A stretch of DNA of 64,000 bases from an uncultured Lachnospiraceae bacterium (GTDB lineage: Bacteria > Bacillota > Clostridia > Lachnospirales > Lachnospiraceae). The translations under genes and the position numbers were made by a program. This document shows positions 17,251 to 64,000 of the stretch, piece by piece. The stretch lies in the NCBI GenBank assembly GCA_947629565.1, contig CANREG010000002.1, forward strand, positions 20,524 through 84,523, written 5' to 3'. Position 1 is the first letter of the stretch. Each line of letters begins with the position of its first letter. Under the pieces are notes generated by a model that was not told the origin of the DNA, made no database searches, and saw only the letters and a list, made by a program, of their open reading frames with translations.

Positions 17251-17429
17251 GAGCCTTGCACGAATATCTGGGAAACAATCTGCGCAAGCTTGCTTGCAGC
17301 CAGATTGTTTCGCGGATATTCGTATACGGCGACAAGCCGCAGCGAACTGCGAAGCAGTGAGCTGGCAAGGCTCGGTAGAGCAAAGCGACAAGCCGCAGCG
17401 AACTGCGAAGCAGTGAGCTGGCAAGGCTC
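17251..17429 (+). repeat. Nested inverted repeat plus two 45-bp direct repeats between pilC and the pilin gene
   Basis: GAGCCTTGC (17251-17259) is the inverse complement of GCAAGGCTC at 17365-17373 and 17421-17429; ~22-bp hairpin CGAATATCTGGGAAACAATCTG/CAGATTGTTTCGCGGATATTCG; direct repeats 17329-17373 and 17385-17429. Confidence 0.9.
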
Positions 17430-38599: not shown

Positions 38600-38704
38600 T
38601 ATGATTTTGTGGTTCTTGTAATCTCTTATGATTTCTGTAGTTATTTTGTGATATTTATAATCTCTTATGATTTCTGTAGTTGTTTTGTGATTCTTATAAT
38701 CTTT
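38600..38704. repeat. ~2.7 copies of a 39-bp tandem repeat
   Basis: TATGATTTCTGTAGTTATTTTGTGATATTTATAATCTCT at 38627-38665 and variant 38666-38704; shortened variant from 38600. Confidence 0.88.
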
Positions 38705-39033
38705 TATGGCTTCGCAGGCATCTGTCTTTTTGTAATTTGGAGTTGCATTATAAAAACAGATAACATAAATGATAGTTATTATAAATTTAAATATCTATAC
38801 AATAAAATTATATTATATCAATACAATTATTTTTTCAAGTCCGGTTAATGGGACACTTATTTTGATACAATGAATTTATCAAGAAGTTAGATTGAAAAAT
38901 TAAACCTGTACTTTGACAACTGACGATGGCTAAATAAGTCTAATTTACTTTTGCATAAGAATGTTTTTCATTCAAGGATAATTTTAGGTTGCCTAAGTGT
39001 TGACGGAAGATTATAATACAAGGAGGAATGGCT

Positions 39034-55203: not shown

Positions 55204-55827
55204 ATGGAAAAAGAAGAATTGGTGGAAGCCATTGTAAAGTTAGAATGGAATGCTTTTGATAAAGTGGAGAATAAAGGAGGCAGGGCGGAGTGCCAGGATG
55301 ACTGGAATACCTTTTCTCTTATGCGGAAAAGCCAGTATTTGGCATGGCCAAAGGAACTTCTTGAGAGCTTTTACGAGGATTTTGTCGAGGCCAACCGGAA
55401 GGGCTGGAACCTGATTACAGAAAAATATGGACGCATGATGGAATCCACCGTCCCGGAGGAATACGAGGCAATCAAAGCACAGCTTCCCCCCTGTCCTTCA
55501 CAGAAACGGGCAATCGTCAATCAGATTGCGGAGATTCAGGTGCAGTGGATGGAAGATTTTGCAAAGGAATATCCTCATATGGCCATGAATGCCCGGAGTA
55601 TTCATTCCTCTGAAGATACACCCTACAACACCTCCTATGAGACCTACCTAAAGGGCGAACTGATGACCTACTCTGACCGCACCTTAAACCTTTATGGCCG
55701 GTGGATTGTCGACTTAAACCAAAAGGACGAAAACCTTGCCCGCATAATCATGACAAACACAGCGCTCCTTTACGGCTACGCCTCCTTACAGGCCGCCGAA
55801 GAAGCCCTTGGCAGCCAACCCCAATAA
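55204..55827 (+). CDS. DUF4125 family protein
   Basis: 207 aa; 'EAIVKLEWNAFDKVENKGGRAECQDDWNTFSLMRKSQYLAWP'. Confidence 0.75.
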   Translation: MEKEELVEAIVKLEWNAFDKVENKGGRAECQDDWNTFSLMRKSQYLAWPKELLESFYEDFVEANRKGWNLITEKYGRMMESTVPEEYEAIKAQLPPCPSQKRAIVNQIAEIQVQWMEDFAKEYPHMAMNARSIHSSEDTPYNTSYETYLKGELMTYSDRTLNLYGRWIVDLNQKDENLARIIMTNTALLYGYASLQAAEEALGSQPQ

Positions 55828-56350
55828 CCCTTCCTTTTTCCCATATCCTTATTGGCGTTTCCCGGCGGCTCCCTTTCTCTTATCCGCATTTTTTACAAAA
55901 CCGCCTCGGGATAATCCTTTCCCATTTTCCCGCACTGCCATCGGTTTTAAGAAATCCTGCTGCCGGGCTCTCCTGCATATTAGATTGCACGCGCTTACGA
56001 AGAACTCGCACCGGGAAGGGGTGACTGGGAAACATTTGCAGCCCCTTTGAAAACGCCGGTACTTGCGAAGGCCCTTTCTTAATCTGTTATTCAGCAGATA
56101 ATGAACAGGGCCTTCGCTTATGTACCGCTGCGTTTTCGACAGAGCGCAAGCGTGGCTGCATAATGTTTGCCCAGCACCCCAAACCCGGTGCTCAAACACT
56201 TCTTCGCGCGTGCAATATGCAGGAGAGCCCGACAGTGGATTTCTAAAAAACCGCGTGTCGGGAAAAATGGGAGAAGGATTACTCCGGGGCGGTAATTTAC
56301 TAATCATATGGCGGATAAGAAAAAGGGAGCCGCCGGGAAACGGAAAAAGT
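55826..56350. repeat. ~500-bp imperfect palindrome with ~190-bp arms and a central GC-rich hairpin
   Basis: Left arm ~55856-56042 vs reverse complement of ~56155-56341, e.g. CGTTTCCCGGCGGCTCCCTTTCTCTTATCCGC vs CGTTTCCCGGCGGCTCCCTTTTTCTTATCCGC; centre GCGAAGGCCCT...AGGGCCTTCGC. Confidence 0.93.
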
Positions 56351-56473
56351 AAATTTTTGTGTTGAAAAAGAATGGATTATACAGTATAATGCTGATATGT
56401 GAGTGCTTATGGCATGGAAGATTGTGGTTATAAGTACAGAGGATATGTGACTTATGGTAAGGAGGATTTTATA

Positions 56474-60600: not shown

Positions 60601-60730
60601 CGGCTTGGAAGTAAGCGGCTTGGAAATAACCGGCTTGGAAGCAATCGGCTTGGAAACAACCGGATTGGAAACAGGCGGCTTGAAAACAGCCGGATTAGAA
60701 ACAAGCGGCTTGAAAACAACCGGCTTGGAA
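60601..60730 (+). repeat. 15-bp tandem repeat (CGGCTTGGAAACAAC-like), ~8.7 copies, between spoIIIAD and spoIIIAE
   Basis: Units start at 60601, 60616, 60631, 60646, 60661, 60676, 60691, 60706, 60721. Confidence 0.93.
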
Positions 60731-60766
60731 TATTTGGGAAAGAAATGGGAGAAGGCGGGAGACAAA

Positions 60767-62996: not shown

Positions 62997-63779
62997 GTGA
63001 GGATTTTTATGAAAAAGATATTCAAAAAAAATCAGGTGATTATTACAGCGTTGGCAATTATGATTGCCGTGGCCGGGTATCTGAATTTTACCAGTGATAA
63101 GCAGGTGTTAAATACTTCCGTGGAGGACATGGAAAGTGAAGGAGCCAGCGGCAATTCAGATGACGCAACCGTTAGCGCAGCTGTGGAGGATACCATAGAA
63201 GGACAGGAATTAGCCCTTGAAGATACGCAGTCGGAGGAAGGCGTAGTTGGAGAGGAAGCGGTAATTGACGGACAGGAGGCAGACGGAACCGATATGGCTG
63301 CAAGCGCAGACGCCGCAGCATTGGAGGGAACAGAAGGGGAAGGAAACAGTGACTTAGCATCTGCCAGCTTAGATGAAAACGGAGATCCCATTGATTCAGA
63401 TAAGGTAGGGGAAACTGTGCTTACCAATGCTTCCATTTCCTTGTCCCAGGCAAAGCTGAACCGGGAACAGACACGTTCCAAGGCAAAAGAAATGCTCCTA
63501 GAAATCATCAACAATGAAAATCTTTCAGAGGATTCCAAAAAAGACGCCATCAACGAAATGCTCTCCATGACAGAGCGGATGGAAAAGGAAACAGCCGCAG
63601 AAACCCAGCTTACGGCCAAGGGCTTTCCGGATTCTATTGTCAGCATATCCGATGACAGCGTAGATGTGACCTTAAGCCTTTCCGAACTGACAGACACGCA
63701 GCGCACCCAAATCGAAGACATCATCACCCGAAAAACCGGCTGCGACCTAAGCCAAATTGTAATCACCACCACCAACTAA
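62997..63779 (+). CDS. spoIIIAH: Stage III sporulation protein AH
   Basis: 260 aa; N-term TM, acidic linker, 'LNREQTRSKAKEMLLEIINNENLSEDSKKDAINEMLSMTERMEKETAAETQLTAKGF'. Confidence 0.93.
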   Translation: MRIFMKKIFKKNQVIITALAIMIAVAGYLNFTSDKQVLNTSVEDMESEGASGNSDDATVSAAVEDTIEGQELALEDTQSEEGVVGEEAVIDGQEADGTDMAASADAAALEGTEGEGNSDLASASLDENGDPIDSDKVGETVLTNASISLSQAKLNREQTRSKAKEMLLEIINNENLSEDSKKDAINEMLSMTERMEKETAAETQLTAKGFPDSIVSISDDSVDVTLSLSELTDTQRTQIEDIITRKTGCDLSQIVITTTN

Positions 63780-63780
63780 A

Positions 63781-64000
63781 CATAACCCTTCCCCTTAAAC
63801 ATATACTTAGCCGATTTTAACGGATACTTCTCTATTATCCGCAAAAATATTATTGAATTACCGCCGCAAGGTAATCCTTTTCCCGATTTTCCCGACACGC
63901 GGTTTTTTAGAAATCCGCTGCCGGGCCCTCCTGTATATTGCACGCGCGAAGAAGTGTTTGAGCGCCGGGTTTGGGGTGCTGGGCAAACATTTTGCAGCCA
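63781..64000 (+). repeat. Second copy of the palindromic-element arm, cut by window edge
   Basis: 63888-64000 matches reverse complement of 56153-56265 with ~6 mismatches in 113 nt by eye; 63781 onward resembles the left arm start (ATAACCCTTCC...TATCCGC). Confidence 0.92.

What the first reader, a model, noticed from the sequence alone, without database searches (positions are those of the whole stretch)
63781..64000. Second copy of the palindromic element directly after spoIIIAH
About 107/113 nt identical to the reverse complement of 56153-56265, and like copy 1 it begins within a few bases of a stop codon (TAAacATAACCCTTCC vs caaTAACCCTTCC). A shared 'right after the stop codon' position suggests terminator-associated insertion or a 3'-UTR role. 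The right arm should lie just outside the window.
Basis: seen in the sequence. Interest (0 to 1): 0.72.

Follow-up and report, generated by a model that had tools for sequence, protein, structure and literature searches.

The report
Family of mobile palindromic hairpin repeats
The repeat after spoIIIAH is one copy of an apparently unnamed family of mobile, hairpin-forming DNA repeats, found in over 40% of sampled genera of a major gut-bacterial family, whose central hairpin stays conserved while its long arms change yet keep matching each other.

Summary
In detail: window 63888-64000 matches the reverse complement of 56153-56265 at 107/113 bases, and both copies begin at a stop codon. The contig ends at base 64000. 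The predicted right arm lies at the end of another contig of the same MAG (C54), next to the gene that follows spoIIIAH in a sister species.

This is one of about 52 copies in the genome of a palindrome family I call R1. Its centre is a conserved three-way-junction hairpin with a GNRA-type loop (strong compensatory change, no Rfam match). It occurs in 108/250 sampled genera of the family (Lachnospiraceae by named records) and in some Selenomonadaceae.

R1 elements are transposable. In one genome a 189-bp form makes exact 10-bp target duplications and shares ends with an IS4-family insertion sequence. In the window's own genus a ~205-bp form with different ends makes ~12-bp duplications. The interior inverts between sister species while flanks stay collinear.

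So this is a MITE-like family whose conserved part is the hairpin tip, not the ends. "After the stop codon" mostly reflects short intergenic spaces and sparing of start regions. What the tip does, and what moves the window's own copies, is unproven.

The parts
63777..64000 (+). Copy 2: left arm of the R1 palindrome (orientation A), cut by the contig end; begins at the spoIIIAH stop codon
   Evidence: 107/113 to the reverse complement of 56153-56265; complementary to the end of contig C54 (186 of 200 aligned)
55825..56352 (+). Copy 1: complete R1 palindrome (GNRA strand on +) between a 207-aa ORF and the elongation factor P gene; outer limits approximate
   Evidence: inverted arms 55856-55887 / 56311-56342 and 55942-55981 / 56214-56253
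56033..56162 (+). Conserved tip (three-way junction) of copy 1
   Evidence: covariance model R1, 73.8 bits, E 1.4e-18
56142..56153 (+). GNRA mini-hairpin GAGC-GCAA-GCGT of the tip
   Evidence: sequence; loop GNRA in 43 of 43 loci not selected for it
62997..63779 (+).
   Evidence: ORF; upstream ORF matches TIGR02830 with E 3.5e-31, below its cut-off; no NCBIfam match for this ORF itself

Best explanation
Copy 2 is a member of a widespread family of non-autonomous, palindromic transposable elements (R1), resembling MITEs. SHOWN: the family has a conserved central hairpin (three-way junction with a GNRA mini-hairpin) at the end of long, fast-changing but self-complementary arms. It is dispersed in tens of copies between genes. 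In two genomes it carries terminal inverted repeats and target-site duplications (10 bp and ~12 bp), so it moved by DNA transposition. In one of these genomes an IS4-family insertion sequence has the same ends. INFERRED: transposases act in trans on the ends. Recombination or template switching between the inverted arms flips the interior and helps keep the arms complementary. The tip is kept because it is read as a folded single strand (RNA, or single-stranded DNA) by some cell or element factor. The window copies are older members without visible target duplications and are placed in the family by their sequence.
For: Tip covariation 328 double-change cells against 105+-12 in shuffles; GNRA loop and mini-stem covariation; exact 10-bp duplications in G693, 8.2/10 against 3.5 shuffled; ~12-bp duplications in 20 of 22 G009 sites; IS4-family IS with the same ends as the G693 form; single R1 copy of G107 inside such an IS; interior inversions and arm swaps between sister species; 108 of 250 genera; copy 1 hits the tip model.
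Against: No target duplication or transposase found for the window's own long form; no close homologue of the IS4 transposase in G000, G020 or G009; no autonomous IS with the G009 ends; the IS4 clade does not clearly co-occur with R1. All sites compared between G000 and G020 are shared, so no recent movement is seen in this lineage.
Confidence: 0.72

Rival explanations
1. R1 is primarily a functional non-coding RNA (the GNRA-bearing strand) that binds a protein; its copies are spread by transposition but kept because the RNA is useful to the cell.
For: GNRA loop kept with a covarying stem, third loop base always a purine; conserved unpaired parts across genera; G-U exceeds A-C in the arms, 113 to 74; core 94% identical between G135 copies whose outer arms are 62% identical.
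Against: G-U does not exceed A-C in the tip, 43 to 54; no consistent orientation or neighbour; many genera lack it; interiors flip. No expression data.
Confidence: 0.3
2. One reading: a terminator-associated insertion or 3'-UTR element acting on the gene in front of it.
For: Both window copies start at a stop codon; in G000 the nearest gene end is a stop in 16 of 22 sites.
Against: No such preference in G009 (9 stop, 10 start); little orientation bias; interiors inverted between sister species. Sparing of promoters explains the rest.
Confidence: 0.1
3. DNA-only palindromes: arm complementarity is produced by template switching and arm recombination alone, and the tip has no function.
For: Arm swaps and inversions are seen directly. 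G-U pairs are rare in the tip. In G135 the outer arms differ between copies (0.62 identity) but match within a copy (0.80).
Against: Conserved unpaired and asymmetric parts (CU bulge, UUA loops, GNRA hairpin) persist across genera, whereas template switching would erase them.
Confidence: 0.15

Closest known systems
bcr1-bcr18 repeats of the Bacillus cereus group (as described in PMC6542083, PMC3446304)
   Same: Dispersed intergenic repeats of 100-400 bp; bcr1-3 described as MITE-like with mobile features, bcr10 and bcr18 with conserved RNA structure; bcr1 averages 39 copies per strain.
   Different: bcr mobility is tied to a TTTAT motif and the repeats are restricted to the B. cereus group; R1 has 10-12-bp duplications, another host range and a conserved tip with changing ends.
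MITEs and MIC231-type cassettes of IS4/IS231-family insertion sequences (MIC231 cited in PMC6542083; details from memory)
   Same: Non-autonomous, with the ends of an IS4-family IS in the same genome (G693) and a duplication length close to that family's.
   Different: Known MITEs keep their ends and vary inside; R1 keeps its centre and varies at the ends, across at least two end systems. Never shown to move here.
REP/BIME/REPIN elements (PMC3116915, PMC3733652)
   Same: Dispersed intergenic palindromes persisting within genomes.
   Different: REPs are 20-40 bp with GTAG or CGTC tags (PMC3733652); R1 elements are 160-530 bp and make target duplications.

Membership tests
MITE (non-autonomous miniature inverted-repeat transposable element) | terminal inverted repeats | tested here: met
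   CAATGTCATTWAGTTAAG in G693; AGGTAATTGCGAAAC in G009
MITE (non-autonomous miniature inverted-repeat transposable element) | target-site duplication of constant length | tested here: met
   10 bp in G693, ~12 bp in G009; not visible at the two window copies
MITE (non-autonomous miniature inverted-repeat transposable element) | no transposase gene of its own | tested here: met
   no transposase ORF in the copies; only one R1 locus carries a transposase beside the tip, inside an IS
MITE (non-autonomous miniature inverted-repeat transposable element) | an autonomous element with the same ends in the genome | tested here: inconclusive
   met in G693; none found in G009; no homologue in G000
bcr1-type repeats | TTTAT-linked mobility, restricted to the B. 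cereus group | tested here: not met
   10-12-bp duplications instead; Lachnospiraceae and Selenomonadaceae
REP/REPIN | 20-40-bp units with a GTAG or CGTC tag | tested here: not met
   elements are about 160-530 bp with other ends
REP/REPIN | associated RAYT (TnpA-REP) gene | not tested
   no Y1 transposase search was run
Rfam RNA families | match to a curated covariance model | tested here: not met
   no meaningful hit in the window region or in 11 loci
intrinsic terminator | G+C-rich hairpin followed by a U-run, terminating transcription | not tested
   no terminator scan or transcript data used

The most novel reading that the evidence does not exclude
The R1 tip is a conserved functional RNA module that has been carried by several different transposon end systems, with different ends and duplication lengths, and is dispersed and kept homogeneous while its dsRNA-like arms diversify: a mobile structured RNA used by the element or the host across much of the Lachnospiraceae.
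Probability: 0.3. Interest if true: 0.85.

Novelty: new variant of a known kind. Interest (0 to 1): 0.62.

Why it matters
R1 appears to be one of the commonest undescribed repeats in a dominant family of gut bacteria: 43% of sampled genera, up to about 50 copies by model R1 and over 100 element ends in one 6.1-Mb genome. It breaks assemblies (several contig ends of this MAG lie in copies), and chromosome rearrangements between the two sister species have breakpoints in copies. It is unusual that the centre, not the ends, is conserved, which makes it testable whether a structured nucleic acid is maintained by transposition, by the host, or both.

Tried and rejected
Rfam search of the region and of 11 loci: nothing. 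Viral contigs: no exact match to the tip pattern. Partner gene by neighbourhood in genomes with one or two copies: unrelated housekeeping genes. Fixed function at the spoIIIAH site: G009 also carries two copies there, but it is the only shared site found and about 0.6 are expected by chance (my estimate). Empty sites between sister species: none; the apparently empty spoIIIAH site in G020 holds a deletion remnant. Autonomous IS with the G009 ends: not found. Co-occurrence of the IS4 clade with R1: no clear link. Literature searches for such repeats in this family found no description.

Full report
OBSERVATION. Window 63888-64000 equals the reverse complement of 56153-56265 at 107 of 113 positions; the best other placement in the window is 52. 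Both copies start at a stop codon. The window ends where contig C2 of the MAG ends, so the predicted right arm cannot be read on this contig. Contig C54 ends in the missing right arm (200 aligned positions, 186 complementary to the left arm), followed by a 133-aa gene. In sister genome G020 the same gene follows spoIIIAH directly on one contig, with a short deletion remnant of the element between them. Contigs C2 and C54 are therefore very likely the two halves of one copy; its tip is unassembled.

FAMILY. A DNA search finds 37 matches in the MAG. A covariance model of the conserved tip (R1, 71 sequences) finds 52 in the own genome and 47 in congener G009. In the window it hits only copy 1, at 56033-56162 (73.8 bits), because copy 2 is cut before its tip. 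R1 is present in 108 of 250 sampled genera of the family and in 5 of 399 genomes drawn across the phylum, four of them of this family. Named records of a pattern scan are mostly Lachnospiraceae, some Selenomonadaceae. There was no viral contig match and no Rfam match. The tip pattern and model R1 were first built from loci selected with a GNRA-type loop, so counts that rest on them may miss divergent members.

ANATOMY. The tip is a three-way junction: P2 (AGAC/GUCU), a stem ending in CGGUAC/GUACCG with a CU bulge and a UUA internal loop, a variable hairpin, and a mini-hairpin AGC-GNRA-GCG. Compensating changes are far above shuffles (328 double-change cells against 105+-12; slid alignments 48-103). 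In loci not found through the loop pattern the loop is GNRA in 43 of 43, and the mini-stem itself covaries (AGTGCAAACGT, AATGCGAATGT). Outside the tip, arms of tens to about 200 nt differ between copies but stay about 91% complementary. In G135 the core is 94% identical between copies and the outer arms 62%, while the arms of one copy match each other at 80% (62% across copies).

MOVEMENT. In G693 (6.1 Mb; TIR pattern 126 forward and 136 reverse hits) a 189-bp form is flanked by direct repeats of exactly 10 bp: mean 8.2/10 matches against 3.5 shuffled, no signal at other lengths. A 1.71-kb IS in that genome has the same ends and a 436-aa IS4-family transposase; relatives elsewhere have such ends and 9-10-bp duplications. 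In G107, with a single R1 copy, that copy lies inside such an IS between the transposase gene and the right end. In G009, of the window's own genus, a ~205-bp form with unrelated ends (AGGTAATTGCGAAAC) has ~12-bp duplications in 20 of 22 sites. The same tip thus rides on at least two end systems.

FATE OF SITES. Between G000 and G020 all comparable sites are occupied, but at four loci the interior is inverted between collinear flanks; at L008 the two outer arms are swapped, and at L006 two outer positions changed in compensating pairs. Flanks of several copies are exchanged between the two species, so copies lie at rearrangement breakpoints; misassembly at repeats is a possible alternative there. 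At genus distance only the spoIIIAH site is shared among the sites sampled, about chance level.

GENE CONTEXT. Orientation of flanking genes relative to the GNRA strand shows little bias: 46 both minus, 32 both plus, 16 convergent, 14 divergent (ORFs called by length only). Distances: G000 long form, median 28 nt to a stop and 122 to a start; G009, 43 and 33. The stop-codon position is real here but is not a rule of the family.

STRAND TEST. If pairing were kept mainly at the RNA level, G-U should far exceed A-C mismatches. In the arms it is 113 to 74 (p = 0.005, loci not fully independent); in the tip 43 to 54. The GNRA loop points to one strand being read folded; the weak G-U bias says that much of the arm pairing is kept at the DNA level. 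I hold both as likely contributors.

LIMITS. Nothing here shows transcription, binding or movement in the laboratory. The window copies lack visible duplications.

Noticed in passing
L284-L286 (G159:C21:11500-14000; C59:124500-126500; C59:50000-51800): R1 hairpin units stand in short head-to-tail tandem arrays (spacing 137, 164 or 187 bp), local amplification of whole units.
   Followed up: partly
L398 1263-1366 and 2905-2944 (G065); L452 2798-2890 (G710); L457 1584-1701 (G728): IS4-family ISs appear inserted in or at the end of R1 tips (in G065 with a 10-bp duplication GAACGGAGCG inside the GNRA mini-hairpin); many ISs of this clade lie in palindromic targets.
   Followed up: partly
L015 (G000:C90): The palindrome runs on for tens of bases into locus sequence, giving mirrored promoter-like sequences on both sides.
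   Followed up: no
window 60601-60735: Eight copies of a 15-nt repeat (CGGCTTGGAARYAAN) at the start of a 443-aa ORF of the spoIIIA region; similar 15-nt repeats at 1469-1558.
   Followed up: no
window 17329-17429 and 38604-38720: Two identical 45-nt repeats 56 nt apart, and three 39-nt tandem repeats.
   Followed up: no
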